Virus record (IMG/VR): IMGVR_UViG_3300025785_000076 | Location: 1-26,725 of that record | Reading direction: 5' to 3' (one strand) | Source of the DNA: a virus | DNA: 26,725 nt | Shown: piece after piece, positions 1-26,725 of the stretch | Numbering within the stretch: position 1 is the first letter of the stretch | Layout: every line of letters starts with the position of its first letter | Notes under the pieces: model-generated | Database searches by the model: none | The model's input: the letters and a program-made list of their open reading frames with translations, nothing else | Told to the model about the DNA's origin: nothing | Program-made: the position numbers and the translations under genes

Positions 1-646
1 ATATTGCAAGTTCAAGTTCAGCTTTTCGTGTTTTATAAACATCTTCGTATTTTCCTAACTGGCTTTGCACCACGTTGTTGGCAACAAGATAGTCATACAA
101 CTTAGTTGGGTTCTTGACTCCAGTTGCAACATCGTCAAAGATGCCTTCCAGCTCACCGATGATCTCGCTTGTGCGTTCGGCAAGTCGATCTTGAATAGTG
201 GGACGGTAGGCTACTTGTTCTGCTGTTGCAATCTCTGCAACGGGCTCGGGTTCGGCCTTGGCCACAACTTCCATCACGCTGTCGATGATGAACTCAATGT
301 GACGTCCACGGAACGGCATGCCGGCACGGTGTGCCATGATAAGGCTGCACACTGTCATGGGCAGCAAGCGATCTCCGGCACGGTTAAACGCTTTGACTTC
401 TTCAATTGAAAGTTTGCTGTTTTTTTGCAGCCACTCAACCACATACTTCTTGCAGTCTTTTTGACTGTAGTAATAATTGTAGTAGTAGAAACTCTTACGC
501 AACTTGTTGTCAAATCGCTCATTGTCCCACTCGGCTGCGTCAGCAGTCCACTCAGGTTCTGAACCTGTGTACTTTTCATCTGCGAAAGCAACTCGTGTTT
601 GACGTGGTGCTTTGGTTTTGATCTTGATGCCTGCTACTGTTGCCAT
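1..646 (-). CDS. Conserved hypothetical T4-like phage protein, 3' end beyond window
   Basis: The minus strand is open from an ATG at 646 to the left window edge, giving 215 residues with no stop. The N-terminus reads MATVAGIKIKTKAPRQTR. A tyrosine-rich segment (SFYYYNYYYSQKD, about residues 52-64) follows, then PMTVCSLIMAHRAGMPFRGRH (about 96-116) and IQDRLAERTSEIIGELEGIFDD (about 150-171). The sequence is charged and soluble-looking, with no signal peptide or membrane segment. I associate this type of protein with uncharacterised genes of T4-like phages of aquatic bacteria, but I cannot assign a function. The start is supported by AAGGAAAAC upstream. The gene follows the 66-residue gene after a 9-nt gap, so it is probably the last visible member of the small minus-strand early operon. 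Plus-strand ORFs across this region are antisense shadows. Confidence 0.85.
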   Translation of the reverse strand, partial: MATVAGIKIKTKAPRQTRVAFADEKYTGSEPEWTADAAEWDNERFDNKLRKSFYYYNYYYSQKDCKKYVVEWLQKNSKLSIEEVKAFNRAGDRLLPMTVCSLIMAHRAGMPFRGRHIEFIIDSVMEVVAKAEPEPVAEIATAEQVAYRPTIQDRLAERTSEIIGELEGIFDDVATGVKNPTKLYDYLVANNVVQSQLGKYEDVYKTRKAELELAI

Positions 647-655
647 GAGTTTTCC

Positions 656-856
656 TTAACGAATTGGGTCTGTGCCTGTGCTGAACCAGTGTGCATTTTC
701 TTGCAGTTCTACTGCCTTACAATGCAACTCAAAACTCAAGTTTTGGAAGTATGTAAGATGTCCGAGACTCTCTTGCACAATTTTGCTTGCCTTTGCGGCG
801 TATTTTTCAGCCTGCAATAACTTACGAGCAACTTGCTTGTCTGTTAGCTTTTTCAT
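656..856 (-). CDS. Small hypothetical phage protein (66 aa)
   Basis: The protein is 66 residues, starting MKKLTDKQVARKLLQAEKYAAKAS. An upstream in-frame ATG at 901 would add 15 residues, but the start at 856 is preferred. It has a good ribosome-binding site (AAGGAACGTGT just before ATG), and it overlaps the stop of the preceding gene as ATGA (853-856), the usual sign of translational coupling. The first half is lysine- and alanine-rich and probably helical. The C-terminus (WFSTGTDPIR) is polar. No catalytic motif or membrane segment is visible and I do not recognise the family. It lies in a minus-strand operon behind the 77-residue gene. Small genes of this kind in T4-like phages are often early host-takeover or accessory functions, but nothing here shows which. 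Confidence 0.7.
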   Translation of the reverse strand: MKKLTDKQVARKLLQAEKYAAKASKIVQESLGHLTYFQNLSFELHCKAVELQENAHWFSTGTDPIR

Positions 857-1086
857 ACACGTTCCTTTTTCACGCGGCCAATGCGGCCGGCTTTGTTCCA
901 ATCATACACAACGCCATCAGGGCAAAGCCCATCTTTGACACTGTCTACACCAAAAATCCCACAAACCTCAAAGTCCGCACCTTTAATGGTTACAAACTCG
1001 TCTACAAGTTTTGCGGCTTCCATTGCTGTGTCCAAGCTATCAAAAGCACCACGAACAAAACCTGTGTTATCTATTACTTTATACAT
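853..1086 (-). CDS. Small hypothetical phage protein (77 aa), probably leaderless
   Basis: The protein is 77 residues, starting MYKVIDNTGFVRGAF, with a central DEFVTIKGADFEVCGIFGVDSVKDG and a basic tail (NKAGRIGRVKKERV). I have an impression of similar small genes in T4-like phages of aquatic bacteria but know no function. The start codon at 1086 lies six bases downstream of a perfect TATAAT box (1093-1098), so there is no room for a Shine-Dalgarno site and the transcript should begin at or next to the A of ATG. The next in-frame ATG is at residue 22, inside the conserved-looking part, so 1086 is the best start. The stop overlaps the start of the 66-residue gene by four bases, which forms an operon with the genes at 656-856 and 1-646. 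Confidence 0.75.
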   Translation of the reverse strand: MYKVIDNTGFVRGAFDSLDTAMEAAKLVDEFVTIKGADFEVCGIFGVDSVKDGLCPDGVVYDWNKAGRIGRVKKERV

Positions 1087-1092
1087 GCCATT

Positions 1093-1121
1093 ATTATAAC
1101 GCAGAAACCATTTTGAGTCAA
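1093..1121 (-). promoter_or_regulatory. Sigma-70 consensus promoter for the 1086-to-1 operon
   Basis: Read on the minus strand, TTGACT (1116-1121) is followed by a 17-bp spacer and TATAAT (1093-1098). The -10 hexamer is perfect and the -35 has one mismatch to TTGACA. Six bases (AATGGC) separate the -10 box from the ATG at 1086, so the expected +1 is the A of the start codon. The element sits in the 36-bp gap behind the 1123-1389 gene. It should be read by unmodified host RNA polymerase early in infection. Function is inferred from sequence only. Confidence 0.85.
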
Positions 1122-1122
1122 G

Positions 1123-1389
1123 TTAGTACATTAGTGTGGCCATTAGGTACCACTGCTCAAACTCGTTAACACATACTTCAAATTTTGCTGTCAGTTCTGT
1201 GTACTTATGTGTTACTTTTGACAACCGCCTACATTCTACCATTTCACGATCCATGGCAATGTAGGCATCGTTGCAGTTTGAGTAGATCTTGTACAAGGTG
1301 CTACGGGCTTTGATATCTTTAGTATCCTGCACCATTTTCAAGCACTTTTGCAGGTGCTCATAGTGTTTCATGTGCGTTGGGGTTGTCAT
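1123..1389 (-). CDS. Small hypothetical phage protein (88 aa), probably leaderless
   Basis: The longest reading starts at 1395, but that ATG lies directly against the TATAAT box and would be upstream of the transcription start. The start is therefore placed at the second ATG (1389), giving 88 residues beginning MTTPTHMKHYEHLQKCLK. The protein looks all-helical and charged, with KCLKMVQDTKDIKARSTLYK near the N-terminus and ELTAKFEVCVNEFEQWYLM near the C-terminus. No catalytic motif or transmembrane segment is seen and the family is not recognised. A later ATG at 1371 is possible but also lacks a ribosome-binding site. The gene is transcribed away from gp14 from its own consensus promoter, and its stop is followed by the promoter of the next operon. 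Confidence 0.7.
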   Translation of the reverse strand: MTTPTHMKHYEHLQKCLKMVQDTKDIKARSTLYKIYSNCNDAYIAMDREMVECRRLSKVTHKYTELTAKFEVCVNEFEQWYLMATLMY

Positions 1390-1395
1390 GCCCAT

Positions 1396-1424
1396 ATTAT
1401 AAACTCTACATCATTCGTTGTCAA
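1396..1424 (-). promoter_or_regulatory. Perfect sigma-70 consensus promoter for the 88-aa gene
   Basis: Minus strand: TTGACA (1419-1424), a 17-bp spacer, TATAAT (1396-1401). Both hexamers and the spacing match the ideal bacterial sigma-70 promoter. The ATG at 1389 is separated from the -10 box by six bases (ATGGGC), which predicts transcription starting at the A of the start codon. The layout is the same as at 1093-1121. The promoter is divergent from the late-type element for gp14. Confidence 0.88.
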
Positions 1425-1455: not shown

Positions 1456-2823
1456 GTGGCAAGACTCAGTTTATGGAAAGACGGCTTACACAGCAACGAT
1501 TATAAATTCTTTGATCGCCGTATCAGCGAGATGTTTACCGTCGGCGGAACTGGTATTTTGCTGCACAAATATTTGGGCCCGATCACACAGGGCACCCAAG
1601 TAACAACCACTGCACCTGCCACTGTGGTTACCAATGTATTGGCTGTGAGTGACACTGCCAACATCAATATTGGTGATACTGTGACCTGCACCAATGTGCC
1701 TACCAATGCTAGTGTGATTGCTAAAAATGCGTCAACTATTACACTCAGTGCCAATATTGCAGCCAACGTTGCCGCAGGCACTACTGTGGGCATCAGCACC
1801 TATGCTACCAAACCCAGCTACACCAATCAAAGCGAGCAAAACATTCAAGATCTCTTGTGGATGGAAAATAGAGATCGCAAGTACGACACCAGTGTCTACA
1901 AGATGCGTGGAATTTATCAGCGCCAGGATCAGGACTTTGATCTTAGTCAGTTTGGTTTATTCTTGGCTACCGGTACAATCTTTATGACTTTCCACCTGCG
2001 TGACATGGTAGATTTACTTGGTCGCAAGTTGATGAACGGTGATGTGTTGGAGCTACAGCACTTGACTGACTATGACGCACTAAATCAAGATGTTCCTGCT
2101 GCACTCAAACGCTATTATGTTGTTGGAGACGGCAGTTTTGCAAGTGAAGGTTTTAGTCCCACATGGTGGCCACACTTGTGGCGTGTCAAACTGAATCCTC
2201 TAGTAGACAGTCAAGAATACAAAGACATTCTTAACAATATTAAAGCTGGCAATAGCACAACTCCAATTGGACAAATCTTAAGTACACTAGATACTAACTT
2301 GAAGATCAACGATGCTACTGTACGTGAAGGCGAAGCCAATGTACCATTTAGTGGTTACGACACCAGCAGCCTATACGAAGTTCCACTATTACCAGATGGA
2401 CTGTTGCCTAATCAACCTGAGAAAACTGCCGACGACGTCATTGACAGTGCAGATGAAATACTTGACACTGCCGACGAAGATGTGTTGGCGCCACCGACTC
2501 CTATATACGGTTATCTATCGGGTGCTGCTGTTGCGCCAAACGATCTGGCAATGGGCGTTGGTATACAGTTCCCTATCAATGCCATTAGCGGCGACTACTT
2601 CCTGCGTACAGACTACGTGCCAAATCGTGTGTTCCAATACAATGGCAAAATGTGGGTCACAGTCAATGATGTACAACGCACAAGCCTCACACAGGGCTCA
2701 AACAATCAAACACAGTTGGGCACATTTGTCAATGCTTCAGGTACCTTTACTAATGATCAGGGTCAACAGGTTCCTGTACGACAAAGCCTTAGCACAGCTC
2801 TTACTCCGAAAGCAGATAATTAA
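1456..2823 (+). CDS. gp14: T4 gp14-like neck (head-completion) protein
   Basis: The gene product is 455 residues from a GTG start, beginning MARLSLWKDGLHSNDYKFFD. The GTG is chosen over an upstream ATG at 1348 because AGGA (1445-1448) lies seven bases before it and the upstream part overlaps the divergent gene. The conserved core runs from about residue 128 to 258: NIQDLLWMENRDRKYD, SVYKMRGIYQ, DFDLSQFGLFLATGTIFMTF, LLGRKLMNGDVLELQHL and WWPHLWRVKLNPLVDSQEYKD. This layout resembles T4 gp14, which seals the filled head at the neck before tail joining. Position directly before gp15 matches T4 gene order. Residues about 45-115 look like an inserted Thr/Ala-rich beta module, and the C-terminus carries a further domain (GDYFLRTDYVPNRVFQYNG), so the protein is longer than T4 gp14. 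The stop overlaps the gp15 start (TAATG). Confidence 0.78.
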   Translation: MARLSLWKDGLHSNDYKFFDRRISEMFTVGGTGILLHKYLGPITQGTQVTTTAPATVVTNVLAVSDTANINIGDTVTCTNVPTNASVIAKNASTITLSANIAANVAAGTTVGISTYATKPSYTNQSEQNIQDLLWMENRDRKYDTSVYKMRGIYQRQDQDFDLSQFGLFLATGTIFMTFHLRDMVDLLGRKLMNGDVLELQHLTDYDALNQDVPAALKRYYVVGDGSFASEGFSPTWWPHLWRVKLNPLVDSQEYKDILNNIKAGNSTTPIGQILSTLDTNLKINDATVREGEANVPFSGYDTSSLYEVPLLPDGLLPNQPEKTADDVIDSADEILDTADEDVLAPPTPIYGYLSGAAVAPNDLAMGVGIQFPINAISGDYFLRTDYVPNRVFQYNGKMWVTVNDVQRTSLTQGSNNQTQLGTFVNASGTFTNDQGQQVPVRQSLSTALTPKADN

Positions 2824-4211
2824 TGTCAACCCCTTCAAATTACTTTTACGACGGACAGGTACGTAAATTCATTAGTCAATTTATTAGATTGGTGTCGGAC
2901 TTTTATGTGGAGTTTGGCAAAGACCGTAACGGAATTACTAGTCTGCAACGTGTGCCGGTCATGTACGGAGATCCAAGTCGCCAGGCTGCACAGATTATCC
3001 GCAACAATAGCGAAAACACCATCAATGCTGTACCAGCCATGGCAGTCTATGTTGGCGGACTAGAATACGATCGTGATCGAGTGCTAAACCCTTACGTTGT
3101 CGAAACCATGCAGATACGTCAACGTGAGTTCGACCCCGTGACTGGTACTTATGGCAACAAACAAGGAGCATCCTATAGCATTGATCGATTAATGCCTGTG
3201 CCTTATAAACTGACACTAAAGATGGATGTGTGGACCAGCAACACTGAACAAAAACTTCAGTTAGTTGAACAGATTGGTGTGTTGTTTAATCCAGCATTGG
3301 AAATACAAAGCACAGACAACTACATTGACTGGAGCAGTTTGAGTGCCGTATTTTTAACTGACACAAACTGGGATAGCCGTAGTGTGCCCACAGGCGGCGA
3401 AGAGCCTATCAGTGTGTTTACCTACACATTTGAAATTCCTATCTGGATCAGCACCAGTGTCAAGGTCAAGAAGATGGGCGTTATACAACAGGTCATCACC
3501 AACTTCCAAGATCTCAGCACATTAGAAAGTCTAGGCACTCAACAGGTGATCTCTGTACTGAACTATGGCGTGCTGCTGAACTCCTATGTTACCGGTGGTA
3601 CTCCTTACTATACATTAAAATTACTCAAACCCGAAGACATAGCAGTTTACAATGAATACGGAGTAGATGGAGTAATTGGAACTAGACGTGCTTGGGCACC
3701 TCTACTGGACGAGTATGGTAATTTTATATCTGGGTCAACTGAGATTCGTTTAAGTCAACCAAATGGCAGCGAGATTGTAGGCACTGTGGCAACTAATCCT
3801 GCAGATCCTAGCACCTTGCTCTACACACCATTTGGTGATACACTACCTGCAAATACTCTGAATCCTATCAACGCTATCATTGATCCACAAAATGTCAATG
3901 TGGGCAGTTTCTTAACTAACCCAGCAACCGGAACTCGTTATTTGTTGATCAATGACATTGGTGATTACAGTAACTCCAACGGTGCTTTGGCTTGGCGTGG
4001 TACTGACGGACAAGATTTGGTTGCTCACGCCAATGATATTGTACAGTACAACGGAGTACATTGGACAGTATCGTTTGACAGTGCTAACGAAAATAGTTTA
4101 CAATATGTTACTAATCTAACAACCGGTATTCAATATAAATGGCAAGACATGCAATGGACAAAGAGCTACGACGGAATGTACAATCAAGGCGACTGGATGC
4201 TGGTACTCTAA
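2823..4211 (+). CDS. gp15: T4 gp15-like tail sheath stabiliser and completion protein
   Basis: The protein is 462 residues. The N-terminal half fits gp15, the hexameric ring that caps the contracted-tail sheath and joins the tail to the neck. It starts SNYFYDGQVRKFISQFIRLVSDFYVEF and has LQRVPVMYGD at about 41-50. YSIDRLMPVPYKLTLKMDVW lies at about 118-137, followed by QKLQLVEQIGVLFNPALEIQ, the counterpart of the IVEQILPYFQP segment of T4 gp15. YTFEIPIWIST is at about 201-211. From about residue 255 the protein continues with roughly 200 residues not present in T4 gp15, including TRYLLINDIGDY and DIVQYNGVHWTVSFD, which look like a beta-rich appended domain. It starts inside the stop of gp14 (TAATG), so the two are probably translated in a coupled way. 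Its 3' end overlaps the reading frame of the Nudix gene. Confidence 0.88.
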   Translation: MSTPSNYFYDGQVRKFISQFIRLVSDFYVEFGKDRNGITSLQRVPVMYGDPSRQAAQIIRNNSENTINAVPAMAVYVGGLEYDRDRVLNPYVVETMQIRQREFDPVTGTYGNKQGASYSIDRLMPVPYKLTLKMDVWTSNTEQKLQLVEQIGVLFNPALEIQSTDNYIDWSSLSAVFLTDTNWDSRSVPTGGEEPISVFTYTFEIPIWISTSVKVKKMGVIQQVITNFQDLSTLESLGTQQVISVLNYGVLLNSYVTGGTPYYTLKLLKPEDIAVYNEYGVDGVIGTRRAWAPLLDEYGNFISGSTEIRLSQPNGSEIVGTVATNPADPSTLLYTPFGDTLPANTLNPINAIIDPQNVNVGSFLTNPATGTRYLLINDIGDYSNSNGALAWRGTDGQDLVAHANDIVQYNGVHWTVSFDSANENSLQYVTNLTTGIQYKWQDMQWTKSYDGMYNQGDWMLVL

Positions 4212-4618
4212 TTGGCGCTGGTGCGTTGATTTACTGTCGAGCAACTCACAGATATCTTTTTTTACTACGCAACGATGGTGCTCACAGCGGCACCTGGGGT
4301 CTTGTGGGCGGTAAGATTGAGCCCAACGAAACTGTGGTTGCTGGATTAACTAGAGAAATAGCCGAAGAGTTAGGTGGCATTATTGCGGATGCTAAACTAG
4401 TTCCTATTGAAAAGTTCACCAGTGATACAGGTAAGTTTGAATACCATACCTATGTTATACGAGTTGACGAGGAGTTTGCTCCGGTACTAAATCGAGAGCA
4501 TAGAGGCTACTGCTGGGTACCATTGGATGATTACCCTAAGCCCCTACATCCTGGAGTATGGCGCAGTTTCAAATTTGCCAGTGTGATTGACAAGATCCGC
4601 ACCCTTGAAAGTTTATAA
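4139..4618 (+). CDS. Nudix hydrolase (MutT-like)
   Basis: The protein is at most 159 residues. It has a complete Nudix box, GX5EX7REUXEEXG, at residues 58-80 (GGKIEPNETVVAGLTREIAE, then ELG): glycine 58, glutamate 64, Arg-Glu 72-73, Glu-Glu 76-77, glycine 79. Nudix enzymes hydrolyse nucleoside diphosphates linked to another moiety, using divalent metal held by the box glutamates. The fold begins at about residue 24 (LIGAGALIYCRATHRYLFLLR). The substrate cannot be deduced. T4 also encodes a Nudix protein, and in phages these are proposed to clean nucleotide pools or act on dinucleotides or capped RNA. The start is uncertain. ATG codons at 4139 and 4154 lie inside gp15 and lack a clear ribosome-binding site, and an unusual ATT overlaps the gp15 stop at 4211. 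The 3' end overlaps a convergent gene by 6 bp. Confidence 0.9.
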   Translation: MARHAMDKELRRNVQSRRLDAGTLIGAGALIYCRATHRYLFLLRNDGAHSGTWGLVGGKIEPNETVVAGLTREIAEELGGIIADAKLVPIEKFTSDTGKFEYHTYVIRVDEEFAPVLNREHRGYCWVPLDDYPKPLHPGVWRSFKFASVIDKIRTLESL

Positions 4619-9230: not shown

Positions 9231-9240
9231 ATATTTATCC
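9231..9240 (-). promoter_or_regulatory. Candidate T4-type late promoter for the 1034-aa virion gene
   Basis: The minus strand reads GGATAAATAT, 35 bp before the ATG at 9195 and in the 49-bp gap behind the 150-residue fibre gene. It matches nine of ten bases of the element at 18321-18330 (GGATAAATAC) and fits the single-box T4 late promoter model. The short leader would contain the GGAG ribosome-binding site. Confidence 0.55.
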
Positions 9241-9244
9241 CAGA

Positions 9245-9697
9245 TCAACTGCCCAGTACGAGATCAACAGGTTTGAATGGATAGAATTTGGTAGTAGACG
9301 GGGCGCCGCCTGTTACCGCACGTATGGTAATTTGACTACCCATGGGCGGAGCGTCGGCAAAGCGTAGCTGATTGTTAGGATCTAGAGTGTAGCCACGGTT
9401 GGCGCTCAGCACATAGCTGGGCCAAGTTAGGTCGCCGTTGTACTTGAAGGCGGGTTGATATACCCCGTTCAGCATGACTTGTATGCTCCAGGGACTGGTA
9501 AAAATCACTGGTGATCCGTTGTAGTTGGTGGGGAAAGTGTTGGTATAGCCGTCAACCAGGTTGGAGATGTCGTCCAAGTCGTAGATGGCGTTGCTGCCCG
9601 CAACACGGGTCCAACTGTTGCTGGTGCTGTTGTAGCTGTACAGCGTGTTGTTGACTACACTCTGCTGTCCGTTTGAGGGGTTTGCTGGAAATGACAT
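9245..9697 (-). CDS. Short fibre-related structural protein with MSFP N-terminal module (150 aa)
   Basis: The protein is 150 residues. Residues 1-32 (MSFPANPSNGQQSVVNNTLY, then SYNSTSNSWTRV) are the same N-terminal module that starts the fibre proteins at 10247-11647 and 12030-13874. The rest is a separate domain: YDLDDISNLVDGYTNTFP (39-56), PWSIQVMLNGVYQPAFKYNG (69-88), SANRGYTLDPNNQLRFADAP (98-117) and FYPFKPVDLVLGS at the C-terminus. This second domain looks like a small beta-sandwich structural module of T4-like aquatic phages. The protein is far shorter than the other two MSFP proteins and lacks a glycine-rich tip, so it may be a cap or adaptor. It has an AGGAT ribosome-binding site and a CTAAATACCC element upstream. 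No enzymatic motif is seen. Confidence 0.75.
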   Translation of the reverse strand: MSFPANPSNGQQSVVNNTLYSYNSTSNSWTRVAGSNAIYDLDDISNLVDGYTNTFPTNYNGSPVIFTSPWSIQVMLNGVYQPAFKYNGDLTWPSYVLSANRGYTLDPNNQLRFADAPPMGSQITIRAVTGGAPSTTKFYPFKPVDLVLGS

Positions 9698-18320: not shown

Positions 18321-18330
18321 GTATTTATCC
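18321..18330 (-). promoter_or_regulatory. Candidate T4-type late promoter for the 575-aa fibre gene
   Basis: The minus strand reads GGATAAATAC, 20 bp before the ATG at 18301. It lies immediately downstream of the hairpin terminator, where a new transcription unit would be expected. The same element occurs at 9231-9240. A start about six bases after TAAATA leaves a leader of about 15 nt that contains the GTGAGA ribosome-binding region. Confidence 0.65.
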
Positions 18331-19605: not shown

Positions 19606-22600
19606 TTAAATTGCCATGTAATCTCGTTTGATTCTCAAGATTGTGTTGGCGTTTGTTGTAGTAGCCTGCAATTGAGCAATGTTACCACTTGTTGATCCAC
19701 TGTAGGTTACTAGTGTGTTACCCGCAGTGTTGATTCTACCATAGGCTGTTAGGTACACGGATCCAGCACCTGCACCGTTACCAGTATGTACCATGTGTAC
19801 TTCAGTCATTTCACGAATGTTTGTACCTTGTAGTGTTGCTGTGATAGTGTATTTTGCACTGCTGTAGCTGTTAGCAAACAAGTTGTCAACGACACTGGTA
19901 CCAGCACTGGCAATAGTCACGTTTGAACCATTGGTTACGAAACCACCGTTGGTGTCAATAGTATACTGTGTAGTCTGTGATGATGTACCAGTTGTAAATG
20001 TTACACCAGTTCCTGTGATCACGTTGACTGTGTTGTAGCCACTGGTATCGCTCAATCCAGTAACTGTGGTAGTTGTAGTCAACATACGAACGTCAATCAC
20101 GTCACCGTTAGCTGGATTTTCAGTGAATGTTAGTGTTGTACCACTTACTGAGTAGGCCAATGTTGGGATCTGTACCACACCGTTGATAGACACAATACAA
20201 CTGTTGGTTGTTTGGCTACTTGGCAATGTGAATGTTGCAGTAGATCCTGTTCCAGTAAATTGTGCATCAGCAATAACTGTAAAGTTACTTGAAGCTGTTT
20301 GCCAACTTGTACCGTTGTACCATTCAATTGCGTTGGCAGTTGTACTGTAACGGAACATACCAGCAACGTCACTATAACCTGAGCTACCTGGACGTTGTGC
20401 GTTAGTACCAACTGGCAACAAGATACTGTCTGTGGTGTTGATGTTTAGTTTAGCACCGTTGACCACTGAGCTTGCTGTTGCGCTGTTACCAATAATAACT
20501 GTATCGTATGTGGCATTTGGACGTGCCCAAATCAATGTGCTGTCGTTTTTGCCTTTAACTACTACATCGTTACCTGCTGCTTGGTTACCGTTCAAGAAGA
20601 CTGCGCCGCCTAAGAATACGTTGCTGCCAAAACTTGCTCCGCCCCAAACTTGCAACGCACCTGTGTTGGCTGCTGGGCTTGCGTTAGTTGGCAATTTGAT
20701 TGAGAATGTACCGCTGGTACTTGCGTTGCCATGGAAGCGAGCAACTTCACTGTTTGAGTAGAAGCTGCCAACACCAATTACAATGTCATTGTAGCTGCCG
20801 GTCCAGTCTGTGCTCAATACCAAGTTGCCGCCCACTGTTGAGTTGGCAGCGCTGGCAAACAAGTAACCATCGTTGGCTTTGGTTATTGAGTATACTGGGT
20901 CACTAAACGCATCGCCAGTGAAGCCCATGTCCATCCAACCGTGATCGTTTGATGGGCCAGGGTAGTTGTTGGCGTAAGCAATAAAGTCACTGGAACCAGA
21001 GTTGGTTGCGTTGATCAGTGCGTCTTGTGTGTACTGTGTGCCTGGGCCTGTTGTACTTGTTCCACGTTTAACTGCAATAGCTCCAGTCAATACTGTTGCT
21101 TGTGCGCTGGTGCCAACAAACATTTGTCCACCAATGTTGATGTTACCAGTTATTGCTGTACCACCCGAGACTTGCAACGCACCAGTGGAGTTGTTCGTGG
21201 TAGCTACACCACTACCAGCAATGATTGCACCGCTGGCACTCAACTGTCCGTTGACTTGTAGTGTTTGGATATAAGAAGTACCTGAGCCGTTAAATGCTGT
21301 TGCACTCAATGTACCAGTGTTTGGTACATAGCTCAAGCTACCGTTGACCTGTGCTTGTGTGTTACCAGTTGTTGACTGACCACTCAACATTGGGTAGTAT
21401 GTACCACCGCTGGTGTTGTTGGTTACGCCTGCATAGATTGATGCGTTGGCTGTTGCAACTGAACCAATACTACCAGGGTTGATGTTAGTTAAGTATGCAC
21501 CAGATCCAACAAAGGCTGTTGCATACAAATTACCACTACTTGGGTTGACGTTAATTGTGCTTACTGCACCCAATGTACTGTTACCGTTGGTAACGTTGGC
21601 AAAAGGAATATAGTAGGTTTGATTGTTGCTCAGTGGTATGATCTGTTCATACACAGCCACGTTGGCTGTTGCCACTGTACCAACCACGTTAGCAGCCGAC
21701 AAGTTACCAACCAGTGTAGTTGCAAATACTGTATTAACGCCACTGATGTTGCCGTTTGATCCAGCAGTTGTGATGTTACCGGCAGTAATGTTACCAGCAA
21801 ATGTAGCAGTATTGCCGCTGAATTGAGCACCAGTGTTGCCAATGGTGGCTGCGTTTATGGTAGTAGCAGTTACAGTACCAAATTGACCACTTGCTGCTGC
21901 ATTACCAATAGTGGCAGCGTTTACTGCGTTGGCTGTTACTAGCCCAGTTATTGTAACACTTGAACCACTGAAGTTGGTGCTGGTATTACCAATTGTGGCG
22001 CCATAAACGTTGGTTGCTGTTACTGTACCAAACTGACCACTAGCACTTGCATTGCCGATTGTAGCTGCATTGACAGTAGTGGCAGTCACAGTACCAAACT
22101 GTCCACTAGCACTTGCATTACCAATTGTAGCTGCGTTAACTGTTGCGGCTGTCAATAGTCCAGTTAGCGTTGTTGTAGCACCGCTTAGAGCAGCACCAGC
22201 GTTACCAATCGTTGCGGCATTGACTGTACTGGCTGTTACCAGTCCAGTTAGTGTAATGCTGGAGCCACTGAAGTTGGTACTTGTATTACCTACTGTGGCA
22301 GCATTAACTGTGGTTGCTGTTACTGTACCAAATTGACCACTAGCACTTGCGTTACCAATCGTAGCAGCATTAACTGTAGTTGCTGTGATAAATCCAAATT
22401 GCCCGTTGGCGCCTGCATTGCCTACTGTGGCTGCATAAACGTTAGTAGCTGTTACTGTACCAAACTGTCCGCTTGCTGCGGCATTACCTATAGTAGCCGC
22501 GTTAACTGCACTGGCTGTCAGCAAACCAGTTAAAGTTGTAGTAGCACCACTCAACGCTGCTCCGGCGTTACCAATGGTTGCAGCATTAACAGTAGTAGCT

Positions 22601-24081
22601 GTTACTGTACCAAACTGTCCGCTTGCTGCGGCATTACCAATAGTTGCTGCTTGAACTGTACTTGCTGTCAATCCACTGGCAGCATTCAATGATGTAAATG
22701 AACCAGTACTGGCCGTAGTTGATCCAACGGGAGTGTTTTGAATACTACCAGCGTAGACGGCACCAGCAATACCAGCGCCGCCTGCTACATATAGTGCGCC
22801 GCCTGTGGCCTGTGTTGTGCCTGTGGCAGCAGTAGTATTGGCTACAATCAAGTTACCAATCTGCAATGCTTCCCAAGTGCTGTTGGTAAAGTTGACTGTG
22901 CCGCCAGCGGGTTCTGGAGTATTGGCAAACAGTTTCCAAATACCTGCTGTGTGATCACGTACAAATCCAGTGTGTTGATATGGAGTACTACCAAATGGGC
23001 CAAAGTGACTATAAAAACCAATTTCGTAGTTGTAGTTACTTGGTGTATTGGCATTCAAATATAGTAAAGGATCTGTTACTTCAAGAATCTGTGTTGTTGT
23101 GCTGATCAAGTTACCAGCATACACGTTGCCGGCAACATACAAGTTGCCGCTGATGCCTGCGCCGCCAACAATTTGCAGTGCGCCGCTATTGTATTGAGAT
23201 GCGTTGTTGTCTGGACCAGTTAAAGTGATGCTGGTGCCATTAAATGTACCAGCACTGATTGTACTTGTGCTTGGGTTCACGTTGACTGTTGTGACTGCAC
23301 CAGTTATGCTGTTGCCTACGGTTAAGTTGGCAAACTCCAAGTAATATGTTTGGTTGTTGCTAAGTGGGGTAATTTGGCTATAGTAACTGACGTTGCCAGC
23401 ACCTGCTGTGGCAATACCAGTCAAGTTTGAACCGTTACCGTAGTATGCACCGTTGGTCAATACAATGTTACCGTTGACGCTGGTAACGTTACCAATGATG
23501 CTAAGGTTAGCATAGTTGGCAATACCAAGTGTACCAGTGTAAACGGCACCCATTGCATACACTACGTTTGACACGTTGGCCGCGGCTGCTGGAACACTAG
23601 TATCAGCAAAGTTTACAATACCAGCTTGGTAGTCAAAGAACCAGCTGTCGTTGGCACCTGAACCTGCTACTGGCAACTGTGTAAAGTTTGCTACCTGTGC
23701 AGCACTTGCACCTGGAGGACCTGCATACAGTTTGAGTTGGTATCCAGATCCAAAGCTGGGAGGAATCCAGTTTGTAATGCCTGTGTTCCAAGTTTCTTGG
23801 CTAACACTTTCGCTAAGTGAAGTAGACTGTACCACTGCACTTGTACTGGTATTATACACAGCAACAATCGTGCTGCCGTTGACTACTGTGTTAGCGCTGG
23901 GTGCAGACGACACACTTGGAATATAGTAATCCTGTTGCCAAACATATTGACCCGGAGTCAATAGTGGACTAGGTATAGATTCGTTAAACGGATATTTCGC
24001 AGTCGAAACATCGGTTTTGGCGATGCTATATCCAACCTTTTTATTTAAGTAGTCAACAATTTGTGTTTGTGATATTGCCAT
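19606..24081 (-). CDS. Giant tail-fibre protein with AATIGN repeat shaft (1491 aa)
   Basis: The protein is 1491 residues and the largest in the window. The N-terminal attachment-like domain (about 1-190) reads MAISQTQIVDYLNKKVGYSI, LLTPGQYVWQQDYYIPSV and NDSWFFDYQAGIVNFADTSV. I associate this type of N-terminus with fibres of T4-like aquatic phages. The shaft (about 190-1020) is Asn/Thr/Gly-rich beta repeat. It holds four TGAL-type GG modules and, near residues 474-764, twelve AATIGN units. A module with NDHGWMDMGFTGD and KANDGYLFASAAN (about 1025-1110) matches the neighbouring giant fibre. The C-terminal part (about 1260-1491) has ATFTLPSSQTTNSCIVSING and GDVIDVRML, and ends in ANTILRIKRDYMAI. 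Long distal or side fibre function is inferred. The start has AAGAG upstream and lies 16 bp from the preceding gene. Confidence 0.85.
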   Translation of the reverse strand: MAISQTQIVDYLNKKVGYSIAKTDVSTAKYPFNESIPSPLLTPGQYVWQQDYYIPSVSSAPSANTVVNGSTIVAVYNTSTSAVVQSTSLSESVSQETWNTGITNWIPPSFGSGYQLKLYAGPPGASAAQVANFTQLPVAGSGANDSWFFDYQAGIVNFADTSVPAAAANVSNVVYAMGAVYTGTLGIANYANLSIIGNVTSVNGNIVLTNGAYYGNGSNLTGIATAGAGNVSYYSQITPLSNNQTYYLEFANLTVGNSITGAVTTVNVNPSTSTISAGTFNGTSITLTGPDNNASQYNSGALQIVGGAGISGNLYVAGNVYAGNLISTTTQILEVTDPLLYLNANTPSNYNYEIGFYSHFGPFGSTPYQHTGFVRDHTAGIWKLFANTPEPAGGTVNFTNSTWEALQIGNLIVANTTAATGTTQATGGALYVAGGAGIAGAVYAGSIQNTPVGSTTASTGSFTSLNAASGLTASTVQAATIGNAAASGQFGTVTATTVNAATIGNAGAALSGATTTLTGLLTASAVNAATIGNAAASGQFGTVTATNVYAATVGNAGANGQFGFITATTVNAATIGNASASGQFGTVTATTVNAATVGNTSTNFSGSSITLTGLVTASTVNAATIGNAGAALSGATTTLTGLLTAATVNAATIGNASASGQFGTVTATTVNAATIGNASASGQFGTVTATNVYGATIGNTSTNFSGSSVTITGLVTANAVNAATIGNAAASGQFGTVTATTINAATIGNTGAQFSGNTATFAGNITAGNITTAGSNGNISGVNTVFATTLVGNLSAANVVGTVATANVAVYEQIIPLSNNQTYYIPFANVTNGNSTLGAVSTINVNPSSGNLYATAFVGSGAYLTNINPGSIGSVATANASIYAGVTNNTSGGTYYPMLSGQSTTGNTQAQVNGSLSYVPNTGTLSATAFNGSGTSYIQTLQVNGQLSASGAIIAGSGVATTNNSTGALQVSGGTAITGNINIGGQMFVGTSAQATVLTGAIAVKRGTSTTGPGTQYTQDALINATNSGSSDFIAYANNYPGPSNDHGWMDMGFTGDAFSDPVYSITKANDGYLFASAANSTVGGNLVLSTDWTGSYNDIVIGVGSFYSNSEVARFHGNASTSGTFSIKLPTNASPAANTGALQVWGGASFGSNVFLGGAVFLNGNQAAGNDVVVKGKNDSTLIWARPNATYDTVIIGNSATASSVVNGAKLNINTTDSILLPVGTNAQRPGSSGYSDVAGMFRYSTTANAIEWYNGTSWQTASSNFTVIADAQFTGTGSTATFTLPSSQTTNSCIVSINGVVQIPTLAYSVSGTTLTFTENPANGDVIDVRMLTTTTTVTGLSDTSGYNTVNVITGTGVTFTTGTSSQTTQYTIDTNGGFVTNGSNVTIASAGTSVVDNLFANSYSSAKYTITATLQGTNIREMTEVHMVHTGNGAGAGSVYLTAYGRINTAGNTLVTYSGSTSGNIAQLQATTTNANTILRIKRDYMAI
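21790..22662 (-). repeat. Twelve-unit AATIGN repeat array in the 1491-aa fibre gene
   Basis: Twelve units begin VNAATIGN or a close variant (VYAATVGN, VYGATIGN, INAATIGN). Two forms alternate irregularly: a 22-residue form continuing (S/A)ASGQFGTVTATT and a longer form continuing with SGxxTTLTGLLTA. Many 66-bp units are close at DNA level (gtagctgcattgac-type cores, accaaactgtccact-type spacers) but differ at scattered third positions. This suggests repeated duplication followed by drift or gene conversion. A beta-solenoid shaft is likely. Confidence 0.85.
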
Positions 24082-24097
24082 TTTATATTTCTCTTAA

Positions 24098-26725
24098 TTA
24101 TGCAGCGATGCTCAATGCAGTCAACGATTGTGCGCTTGTCAGTTTGACCCTGACATAAATCTCATTGCTCTTATTACCAGCACTTGATGTACTTGCTGAA
24201 CCCAATGTTACTTGAATACTGTAAGTACCTGGCGAGTTCAGTGTTGCGTTGCCACCAACTGCACAGCCCGCAGTACCGTTACCACCAGTACCTGTACCTG
24301 GAACGCCAGCGCCGCCATAAGCAGAGGCAGCGTTCAGCCATCCATTGGTTGGACTTGCTGGAGTATCTGTTACCCCAGGGCATGCCATCCACAAGCCAGC
24401 CAGTGTGCCTGTATAGTTGATGTGGAATGTGGACAATGCAGCCTGTGAAAACTTGAATGTGAAGTATTGGCTAGCACTACGTCCTGAACTCAAGTTTGGT
24501 CCAACTGGGTAGTAGCCAGTTGAGTAGTTGGTTACATCATACTGTAGTTTTGCAGCCACAACCGTAGCATCTGTTGCCAACAAGGTGCTGGTTGCACTGT
24601 TGAATGTGGTTTCTGTTCCAGTGTATGCAGGGTTATCAGCAGCAGTACCGCCGTCTGGATTGGTAATACGTGCGGCTGTGCCGTATGCAGTTGTCAAACT
24701 GGTTTCTTCAATCTGTGTGGTTGTGCCTGTTTTATACAAGATAATGCTACCTGGTGCAAATTGTCCACTACCACTAGTTGCATATGGTGTTGAAACGCTC
24801 AGTGTTGGGCCAGTTGCTGCACTAGCACTACCAAATCCAGTTGTCACGTTTGATGTGGTTGAGAACGAGTAAGCACTGGTGTTGTTGCGTGTTAGCGGTA
24901 CTGGTACACCTACTTGTGACAATGTTCTATTGGCTGGTGCTAGTAGTGCACCACCTGCACCAAGACTTGAGAAGAAGTTAGCACTAGTGCTGGTCCATGC
25001 TGCATAGTACAAATCTCCGCTCAAGTTTTGTACTGTACCGTTTAGTGTAAAGCCAGCGCTTGAGTTTAAATGCGGAATTGTACTTGAGTAAGTAACTGTG
25101 TTGCTAGTCAATGCTATACTGGTTGCACTGAATGCTGGAGCAGTTGGGCTAGAACTATCATAGTACCAAGTTAATGTTGGTGTTGCTGCGGCATCACCTG
25201 TGTAATAAATGTTGGCTCTGTTCCAACCAGCGGGTATGCTTGTTGCTGCAATTGATGCTGAAAATACGTTCCAGAAGCCAGCTGCCACTGTACTCACAAT
25301 GTTGTGATAATCTTGTACACCTGATACTACCAAGTTACCATAAGTGCCGTTGTCTGCGCTGGTTGGAGTTGATGTCAGTGCATGGAAATTGCTTGGCGGC
25401 ACTACGCCATTTATGTATAACTGAATGTTACCGCCACTAGGGGTAGTTCCCGAGTTGGTCACTGTACTGGTTGCAAAAACTGCACTTCTTACTACGTTTA
25501 CTGCGGTTCCGCCACTAACGCTTAGGTTGCCCCATCCTGAATTGTCAGTCTGTGCAAAGTTTGACATCAATCCTGAGATAGTACCAGTGGATTGAGTCAG
25601 TGTTGTTGCTGGGAAGTTAGGAGGACTTGATGGTGTCAATTTACCTAAAATTGCGTTTAGCTGTGCAATAGCATCTGTCAAGTCTGTCGTAGTAGTCAAT
25701 GCTACTGCATTAGATACCAACTGTCCGCTTACATTGGAGCCTAGTAGAATACTGTTACCCAACAGTGATGAAAAGCTCAAGTTACCTGCGCCATCAGTTA
25801 CAATAGTATAACCACTAGATCCACCTGTGATCTGTACGTTGCTGATGCTGCCAAGTCCAATCTTGCCAGTGTTGCTGGTAATCGAATTACCGTATAGTAT
25901 TAGGCTACCTGTTGCACTATTGGCATAGATATTGCCCAGTGTATTGACAGTTGTGAATACTGCTGATCCTGGAGTCACGTTGCCAATGGCTGCTGCCTGT
26001 AGGCCACCAAATGTAGCAGTACTACCTGTCACTGCTGCACCAGTGTTGCCAATGGTGGCTGCATTGACTGTGGTTGCTGTTACAGTGCCAAATTGACCTG
26101 CTGTGGACGCATTACCAACGGTGGCAGCATTGACTGTTGTCGCTGTAACAAATCCAAATTGTGCATTTGCGCCTGCGTTACCTATAGTGGCTGCGTTGAC
26201 TGCACTGGCAGTTAATAGACCAGTTAGTGTTGTAGTAGAACCGCTTAGTGCAGCACCAGCATTGCCAATTGTAGCTGCACTCACTGTACTTGCTGTCAAT
26301 CCAGAAGCTGCATTCAATGAAGTAAAGTTACCTGTGCTGGCTGTGGTTGATCCAACGGGAGTGTTCTGAATACTACCAGCATAGATTGCGCCTTGCACAC
26401 CTACACCGCCTGCTACTTGCAATGCACCACTGGTGGTGTTGGTTGCCGCATTGGTTGATTTGATTGCTACCACGTTGCCGCTGGTGATACGCATCACAGT
26501 GTTGTTTTGGTTGATGCCGCCTGTGGCAAATACAATATCGTTTACAGCACCAGTACCAAGTACCAAGTTGCCGCCACCTGTTGTGGCATTTCCCCAGTTA
26601 AACAAGTAAGCATCGTTGGGCAAAATTAAACTAAAGCCAGGATAGTTGTAGGTGCTGCTGGCAATACCCAAGTCAAGGTAGCCGTCGTTATACGTTCCGT
26701 TGTCTGGACTCAAGAAAATGTCTGT
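24098..26725 (-). CDS. Giant tail-fibre protein, N-terminus beyond window
   Basis: The frame is open to the right window edge. A TTG at 26713 is not a credible start because homologous sequence continues upstream of it (TDIF before LSPDNGTY), so at least 875 residues are visible and the true N-terminus is outside. A module with DGYLDLGIASSTYN, NDAYLFNWGN and NDIVFATGGINQNN resembles modules in the 466- and 1491-residue fibres. TSGALQVAGGVGVQGAIYAG and NTPVGSTTASTGNFTSLNAA follow, then four AATIGN-type units. The C-terminal domain (about the last 130 residues) has YFTFKFSQAALSTFHINYTG, LAGLWMACPG, NGWLNAASAYGGAGVPG and SIQVTLGSAS, ending LTALSIAA. I associate it with ends of T4-like aquatic phage fibres. 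It ends 16 bp before the 1491-residue gene. Confidence 0.85.
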   Translation of the reverse strand, partial: TDIFLSPDNGTYNDGYLDLGIASSTYNYPGFSLILPNDAYLFNWGNATTGGGNLVLGTGAVNDIVFATGGINQNNTVMRITSGNVVAIKSTNAATNTTSGALQVAGGVGVQGAIYAGSIQNTPVGSTTASTGNFTSLNAASGLTASTVSAATIGNAGAALSGSTTTLTGLLTASAVNAATIGNAGANAQFGFVTATTVNAATVGNASTAGQFGTVTATTVNAATIGNTGAAVTGSTATFGGLQAAAIGNVTPGSAVFTTVNTLGNIYANSATGSLILYGNSITSNTGKIGLGSISNVQITGGSSGYTIVTDGAGNLSFSSLLGNSILLGSNVSGQLVSNAVALTTTTDLTDAIAQLNAILGKLTPSSPPNFPATTLTQSTGTISGLMSNFAQTDNSGWGNLSVSGGTAVNVVRSAVFATSTVTNSGTTPSGGNIQLYINGVVPPSNFHALTSTPTSADNGTYGNLVVSGVQDYHNIVSTVAAGFWNVFSASIAATSIPAGWNRANIYYTGDAAATPTLTWYYDSSSPTAPAFSATSIALTSNTVTYSSTIPHLNSSAGFTLNGTVQNLSGDLYYAAWTSTSANFFSSLGAGGALLAPANRTLSQVGVPVPLTRNNTSAYSFSTTSNVTTGFGSASAATGPTLSVSTPYATSGSGQFAPGSIILYKTGTTTQIEETSLTTAYGTAARITNPDGGTAADNPAYTGTETTFNSATSTLLATDATVVAAKLQYDVTNYSTGYYPVGPNLSSGRSASQYFTFKFSQAALSTFHINYTGTLAGLWMACPGVTDTPASPTNGWLNAASAYGGAGVPGTGTGGNGTAGCAVGGNATLNSPGTYSIQVTLGSASTSSAGNKSNEIYVRVKLTSAQSLTALSIAA
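25979..26284 (-). repeat. Four AATIGN-type repeat units in the partial giant fibre gene
   Basis: The four units are SAATIGNAGAALSG, VNAATIGNAGANAQFG, VNAATVGNASTAGQFG and VNAATIGNTGAAVTG, with the same two continuation forms as the array at 21790-22662. The flanking sequence (NTPVGSTTASTG, SLNAASGLTAST) is also shared between the two genes, so a whole shaft segment has been copied between them and not only single units. Confidence 0.85.

What the first reader, a model, noticed from the sequence alone, without database searches (positions are those of the whole stretch)
1084..1424. Two consensus sigma-70 promoters that place +1 on the start codon: leaderless early phage genes
Both minus-strand early genes share one layout: TTGAC(A/T), 17 bp, TATAAT, six bases, ATG. 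With the usual -10 to +1 distance the transcript starts at the A of ATG. No ribosome-binding site can exist upstream, because the -10 box occupies that place. By contrast the downstream operon genes (starts at 856 and 646) have clear AAGGA sites. Two independent occurrences with the same six-base spacing argue against chance. A phage using leaderless mRNAs for its first transcripts could bypass or exploit altered ribosomes early in infection. Leaderless genes are known in several bacteria, but I do not know of this arrangement described for T4-like phages.
Basis: partly seen in the sequence, partly recalled or inferred. Interest (0 to 1): 0.75.

Follow-up and report, generated by a model that had tools for sequence, protein, structure and literature searches.

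The report
Leaderless phage genes, conserved across relatives
Two small genes of an uncultured giant phage have their host-type promoter placed so that the mRNA should start on the start codon itself, leaving no room for a ribosome-binding site, and this exact layout is kept in dozens of distant relatives and recurs at other genes in them.

Summary
TTGACA-17-TATAAT-6-ATG and TTGACT-17-TATAAT-6-ATG precede two minus-strand genes, A (1389-1123) and B (1086-853). The window holds only these two TTGAC/TATAAT promoters (0.06 expected). Leaderless transcription is well supported by comparison. Of 45 distinct gene-B homologue sequences, 35 keep the promoter with exactly six bases to the ATG; all 15 gene-A homologues examined do. 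In promoter-bearing gene-B sequences, spacer and flank have diverged to chance identity. Across 15 phage contigs (1.1 Mb), 38 of 152 consensus promoters have ATG at offset 6, against about 1.6 at other offsets. SD-led promoters in the same contigs show a C(-1)A(+1)T(+2) initiator at offsets 5-7, which puts +1 on the A of the ATG. Cultured jumbo phages show the layout at 5 of 96 promoters. Corrections: the phage is a PA5oct/Munch/Atu_ph07-type jumbo myovirus, only loosely T4-like; 'early' is inferred; exploitation of altered ribosomes is untested. Many relatives encode an initiator-like tRNA, a factor reported to favour leaderless translation. N6-ATG alone is not proof: about a third of such sites open no real ORF. 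No RNA or protein data exist here.

The parts
1419..1424 (-). -35 box TTGACA of gene A
   Evidence: invariant TTGAC in 15 distinct gene-A homologues
1396..1401 (-). -10 box TATAAT of gene A
   Evidence: conserved in homologues
1390..1395 (-). six-base discriminator ATGGGC between -10 and start codon (contains an in-frame ATG at 1395 that homologues do not share as a start)
1123..1389 (-). gene A, 88 aa, predicted leaderless; predicted three-helix protein of unknown function
   Evidence: pLDDT 92.6; no Pfam or PHROG family
1116..1121 (-). -35 box TTGACT of gene B, beginning just after the stop codon of gene A
1093..1098 (-). -10 box TATAAT of gene B
1087..1092 (-). six-base discriminator AATGGC; length kept in 35 of 45 distinct gene-B homologue sequences
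853..1086 (-). gene B, 77 aa, predicted leaderless; conserved from residue 1 (MYKVI...), found in viral contigs only in these searches
863..867 (-). AAGGA ribosome-binding site of gene C (contrast)
656..856 (-). gene C, 66 aa, SD-led, start overlaps the stop of gene B (ATGA)
653..657 (-). AAGGA ribosome-binding site of gene D (contrast)
2..646 (-). gene D, at least 215 aa, SD-led, runs off the window (phrog_11903, unknown function)

Best explanation
Genes A and B are each transcribed from a near-consensus sigma-70 promoter whose +1 is the A of the start codon, giving mRNAs without a 5' leader. Ribosomes would start on the 5'-terminal AUG (the 70S/initiator-tRNA route known for lambda cI). The B promoter fills the 36-bp gap between A and B, so an A-B-C-D message and a B-C-D message are expected, A and B entered at a 5' AUG and C and D through AAGGA sites. 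In this phage clade about a quarter of consensus promoters have ATG at +1, on small unknown genes and on enzymes such as UvdE, an AAA/Zeta-like kinase and a FabA-like protein. Shown by sequence: layout, conservation, genome-wide enrichment in relatives, initiator register. Inferred: actual 5' ends, translation route, timing (probably early or middle).
For: Two promoters against 0.06 expected. 35 of 45 distinct gene-B homologue sequences and 15 of 15 gene-A homologues keep TTGAC-17-TATAAT-N6-start; TTGAC at 2.0 bits and -10 at 1.4-2.0 bits, while median pairwise identity of the gene-B spacer and upstream flank is 0.29 and 0.30, i.e. about chance (0.41 and 0.40 for gene A). 38 of 152 strict promoters with ATG at offset 6 against a mean of 1.6 at other offsets, binomial P 2e-40. 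Gene-centred count: 28 genes at offset 6, 0-2 at most offsets below 20, then an SD-led hump at 20-35. SD-led promoters in the same contigs have C at offset 5 (47%), A at 6 (54%), T at 7 (63%), which places +1 at offset 6 independently of start codons. No SD motif upstream of the 27 predicted leaderless genes. Gene B is conserved from residue 1 (M1, Y2, K3, I5 nearly invariant). The first 40 nt of the leaderless set are less structured than controls (-1.4 against -3.9 kcal/mol).
Against: No mapped 5' ends or protein data. The initiator AT at +1/+2 makes ATG at +1 partly a by-product: ATG 42, ATA 36, ATT 11 at offset 6, and 15 of the 42 ATGs open ORFs under 30 aa, including tRNA-array leaders. 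Nine of 45 gene-B homologue sequences have no such promoter, so leaderless expression is not obligatory for the gene; one (L033) has N7. The contigs were recruited through gene B, which inflates the count somewhat: without the 10 gene-A/B sites, 32 of the 42 remain. The structure control set may contain internal ATGs and differs in GC.
Confidence: 0.86

Rival explanations
1. The promoters are real but the genes are translated mainly from longer read-through messages (for B, from the A promoter), and the start codon at +1 is incidental.
For: B lies 36 bp downstream of A on the same strand; nine homologue sequences lack the promoter and must use another route, two of them with a clear SD (L094, L095).
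Against: On a read-through message B would have no SD; the exact N6 spacing is conserved while everything else drifts; gene A has the same layout.
Confidence: 0.1
2. ATG at offset 6 is a by-product of an AT initiator preference of the polymerase; most such ATGs are not start codons.
For: AT at offsets 6-7 is favoured at leadered promoters too; 15 of 42 N6-ATGs open short ORFs, among them ATGTTAAG.AATTAA at tRNA-array leaders.
Against: Among the 79 SD-led promoters the commonest triplet at offset 6 is ATA (22) and ATG is rare (4), whereas 27 promoters have ATG opening an ORF of at least 40 aa. In other IMG/VR phages, N6-ATG opens ORFs of 60 aa or more in 79 of 129 cases against 24 of 116 for an N3 control (P 1e-10). 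Genes A and B are conserved protein families starting at that ATG.
Confidence: 0.04
3. The layout is adaptive for infection: leaderless messages are favoured once the phage raises initiator-tRNA supply or alters ribosomes.
For: Nine relatives encode a CAT-anticodon tRNA with an unpaired 1:72 position, C:A in eight, a hallmark of initiator tRNA; extra initiator tRNA is reported to enhance leaderless translation strongly (PMC9031893); one relative encodes bS21.
Against: Phages of this size often carry broad tRNA arrays, so the initiator tRNA may be unrelated; bS21 was found in 1 of 25 records; no tRNA in the window itself; no timing data.
Confidence: 0.15
4. The layout simply reflects what the unknown host does: the host lineage may be rich in leaderless mRNAs and the phage follows. 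(Compatible with the best explanation; it concerns why, not what.)
For: Leaderless genes with a -10 box next to the ORF are common in some bacterial phyla (PMC12340547).
Against: Most genes in the window and many promoters in the clade use strong SD sites; TTGAC/TATAAT with both boxes is unlike the -10-only Deinococcus type. Host unknown, so not excluded.
Confidence: 0.35

Closest known systems
Leaderless cI mRNA of phage lambda (PRM promoter)
   Same: Phage gene transcribed from a sigma-70 promoter with the 5' end at the AUG; the standard natural leaderless mRNA (PMC4965119).
   Different: Single repressor gene of a temperate phage; here many unrelated genes in a clade of large phages, with both promoter boxes near consensus and the spacing fixed.
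TANNNT-type leaderless genes of Deinococcus-Thermus
   Same: -10 box a few bases upstream of the ORF with a specific spacing requirement (PMC12340547).
   Different: There about one third of D. radiodurans genes, defined by the -10 motif, with an added -35 only enhancing; here a phage clade with a strong TTGAC -35 at 17 bp and SD-led genes beside it.
5'-terminal AUGs on SD-led mRNAs of E. coli (5'-uORFs)
   Same: Promoter puts AUG at +1 (PMC4965119); the clade's short N6-ATG ORFs (e.g. tRNA-array leaders) resemble this.
   Different: In genes A and B the +1 AUG is the start of the conserved gene itself.
T4 early sigma-70 promoters
   Same: Host-type promoters used by a large myovirus.
   Different: T4 had no match to the strict pattern; T4 early genes are, from general knowledge, SD-led with leaders.

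Membership tests
Leaderless gene (AUG at the mRNA 5' end) | Promoter geometry places +1 on the start codon | tested here: met
   TATAAT-N6-ATG at both genes; initiator register at offset 6 from SD-led promoters
Leaderless gene (AUG at the mRNA 5' end) | No SD upstream of the start | tested here: met
   none in 27 predicted leaderless genes, A and B included
Leaderless gene (AUG at the mRNA 5' end) | That ATG is the true start of a protein | tested here: met
   N-terminal conservation and common start in homologues
Leaderless gene (AUG at the mRNA 5' end) | Mapped 5' end at the AUG | not testable with these tools
   no RNA data; uncultured phage
Host sigma-70 promoter | TTGACA/TATAAT-like boxes 17 bp apart, more often than chance | tested here: met
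   2 against 0.06 expected; conserved in homologues
Early gene of a T4-like phage | Expressed first in infection | not testable with these tools
   only indirect hints: host-type promoter; late-like NATAAATA precedes SD-led genes
Early gene of a T4-like phage | Virus belongs to T4-like phages (Straboviridae) | tested here: inconclusive
   closest structural relatives are jumbo phages Atu_ph07, PA5oct group and Munch at 29-36% identity
-10-only (TANNNT) leaderless genes of Deinococcus-Thermus | -10 next to ORF, no -35 needed | tested here: not met
   TTGAC -35 invariant in the homologues that have the promoter

The most novel reading that the evidence does not exclude
A clade of giant phages has made leaderless expression a standing second mode of gene expression, marking a subset of host-RNAP-transcribed non-structural genes by a fixed N6 promoter-to-ATG spacing, and supplies its own initiator tRNA (in one relative also bS21) so that these messages are favoured as infection proceeds.
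Probability: 0.15. Interest if true: 0.8.

Novelty: new variant of a known kind. Interest (0 to 1): 0.56.

Why it matters
Leaderless mRNAs are known, but in phages mostly as single cases such as lambda cI. Here a whole clade places about a quarter of its consensus promoters on an ATG, kept through deep sequence divergence at two gene families, and a weaker signal runs through other IMG/VR phages. It means that RBS-based annotation of phage genomes can miss or mis-start such genes, it gives a simple motif for finding them, and it makes testable whether phage-supplied initiator tRNA tilts host ribosomes towards leaderless messages.

Tried and rejected
Start of gene A at 1395: rejected, homologues start at 1389. 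N6-ATG as proof by itself: rejected, because of the AT initiator and short ORFs at tRNA-array leaders. T4-type late promoter reading of TATAAT: rejected, TATAAATA-like sites are not enriched in the window and the -35 is invariant in promoter-bearing homologues. bS21 as a general partner: 1 of 25 records, rejected as general. Function of A and B: no Pfam/PHROG family, no solved relative, Foldseek on A gave only weak helical-bundle matches, the B model is poor (pLDDT 65). Cultured phages or bacterial genomes with gene B: none. Host by the tRNA-array leader sequence: no hit. Counting N6 against N7 over all of IMG/VR: the scans stop at 120 rows, so only ORF fractions could be compared. Literature searches for this arrangement in phages found nothing matching in the open library.

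Full report
What is there. On the minus strand two short genes follow one another. Gene A (1389-1123, 88 aa) is preceded by TTGACA-17-TATAAT-ATGGGC-ATG and gene B (1086-853, 77 aa) by TTGACT-17-TATAAT-AATGGC-ATG. The B promoter fills the 36-bp gap between A and B. Genes C (856-656) and D (646-2, cut) follow with AAGGA sites. The pattern TTGACN-15..19-TATAAT occurs only at these two places in the window, against 0.06 expected in shuffles. The window is a whole IMG/VR record of 26,725 bases. Its structural genes resemble those of jumbo phages such as Atu_ph07, the PA5oct group and Munch (29-36% identity), and a 300-kb contig (G001) matches its structural block at about 44%. G011 has D, B, A and the divergent structural gene in the same order.

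Conservation. Homologues of A (25 loci) and B (80 kept of 135) were fetched. Of 45 distinct B upstream sequences, 35 have the promoter in exactly the same register, one (L033) has it one base further off, and nine have none; two of those nine have a clear SD site, the rest were not studied further. All 15 distinct A homologues examined have it. In promoter-bearing B homologues TTGAC carries 2.0 bits per base and TATAAT 1.6-2.0, while the median pairwise identity of the 17-bp spacer is 0.29 and of the flank 0.30, about chance; for A the figures are 0.41 and 0.40. So the boxes, the 17-bp spacing and the six-base gap are what is kept. The rows are related to one another, but saturation of the spacer shows that recent common descent does not explain the constant gap. 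The gene-B proteins are conserved from residue 1 (M1, Y2, K3, I5 nearly invariant), so the ATG is the start codon. For A, homologues start at 1389, not at the in-frame ATG at 1395 that an ORF list picks.

Genome-wide. Fifteen contigs or contig pieces, the window included (1.1 Mb), were read. Among 152 strict promoters, ATG begins at offset 6 in 38, against a mean of 1.6 at other offsets. With a slightly relaxed pattern the count is 42 of 194; taking away the ten gene-A and gene-B sites leaves 32. A gene-centred count gives 28 genes at offset 6, 6 at 5, 4 at 7, 0-2 at most others below 20, then a broad SD-led group at 20-35. Predicted leaderless genes include UvdE, an AAA_33/Zeta-toxin-like kinase, a FabA-like and a cytidylyltransferase-like protein, and several unknown families. 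A GIY-YIG-like pair (named by eye; no Pfam hit) in G001 and L095 and the MTYTV family in G003, G007 and G009 show N6 recurring at other conserved genes.

Where transcription starts. In 79 promoters that lead to SD-led genes in the same contigs, offset 5 is C in 47%, offset 6 is A in 54% and offset 7 is T in 63%. That is a C(-1)A(+1)T(+2) initiator, and it fixes +1 at offset 6 without reference to start codons. In the leaderless set the A of ATG sits in exactly this place. None of the 27 leaderless genes has an SD motif upstream. Their first 40 nt fold more weakly than a control set of ATGs behind SD-like sites (mean -1.4 against -3.9 kcal/mol); the control may include internal ATGs and is GC-richer, so this is supporting only.

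Limits. The AT initiator makes ATG at +1 easy to come by: 15 of the 42 N6-ATGs open fewer than 30 codons, among them a recurrent ATGTTAAG-AATTAA at the start of tRNA-array transcripts. The pattern alone therefore does not identify a leaderless gene; conservation does, for A and B. There are no RNA or protein data, no host is known, and early timing is not shown. NATAAATA motifs precede SD-led ORFs in G001 (13 of 34) and other contigs (26 of 158) against 1 of 6 and 3 of 125 for one control motif, which suggests a separate T4-late-like class without the leaderless layout.

How special it is. In seven cultured phages (Atu_ph07, Phosso, a PA5oct relative, SCTP-2, Munch, T4, phiKZ) 5 of 96 strict promoters have N6-ATG (Fisher P 3e-5 against the clade). 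In other IMG/VR contigs fetched by control patterns, 10 of 136 promoters have it, and N6-selected sites open ORFs of 60 aa or more in 79 of 129 cases against 24 of 116 for N3. So leaderless promoters appear to be a low-level feature of phages at large and a common one in this clade. Nine relatives carry a CAT-anticodon tRNA with an unpaired 1:72 position (C:A in eight) and a full acceptor stem otherwise, as in initiator tRNA. Extra initiator tRNA is reported to enhance leaderless translation (PMC9031893). This is a link worth testing, not evidence of a mechanism; phages with many tRNAs may carry it for other reasons.

Verdict. 'Early', 'T4-like' and the altered-ribosome idea remain inferences. 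The kind is known (lambda cI, PMC4965119; -10-adjacent genes of Deinococcus, PMC12340547); the extent and conservation in a phage clade are new as far as the open library shows, which does not cover most subscription journals.

Noticed in passing
G014 (L113), G003 (L125), G019 (L111); also L042, L079, L092: tRNA arrays of relatives start from TTGAC-17-TA(T/C)AAT-N6-ATGTTAAG-AATTAACATACGCTCTTTAA; the GCTCTTTAA stretch looks like the boxA of rRNA-operon leaders, as if the phage tRNA array used an antitermination signal.
   Followed up: partly
G001 292917-292990, G019 9549-9624, G003 48381-48456, G006 44374-44447; also G005, G007, G008, G011, G022: Initiator-like tRNA-Met genes (unpaired 1:72, C:A in eight of nine, full 2-7 stem) in contigs with up to 40 tRNAs.
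   Followed up: partly
G001 151592-151747: bS21 ribosomal protein gene in the 300-kb relative; not found in the other 24 records.
   Followed up: partly
gene B homologues, codons 1-5: The first five codons are nearly fixed at the nucleotide level (ATGTATAAAGTAATA), with ATA for codon 5 in 27 of 29 although ATA is 24% of Ile codons; seen in homologues without the promoter too.
   Followed up: partly
window 4139-4211: The Nudix gene (4139-4618) overlaps the end of the tail sheath stabilizer-like gene (2823-4211) in another frame by 73 bases.
   Followed up: no
window 19606-24081 and 24098-26713, minus strand: Very long fibre-like proteins with repeated TVNAATIGNA-like units.
   Followed up: no
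window 9232-9239 and 18322-18329, minus strand: GATAAATA upstream of two structural genes, resembling T4-type late promoters.
   Followed up: partly
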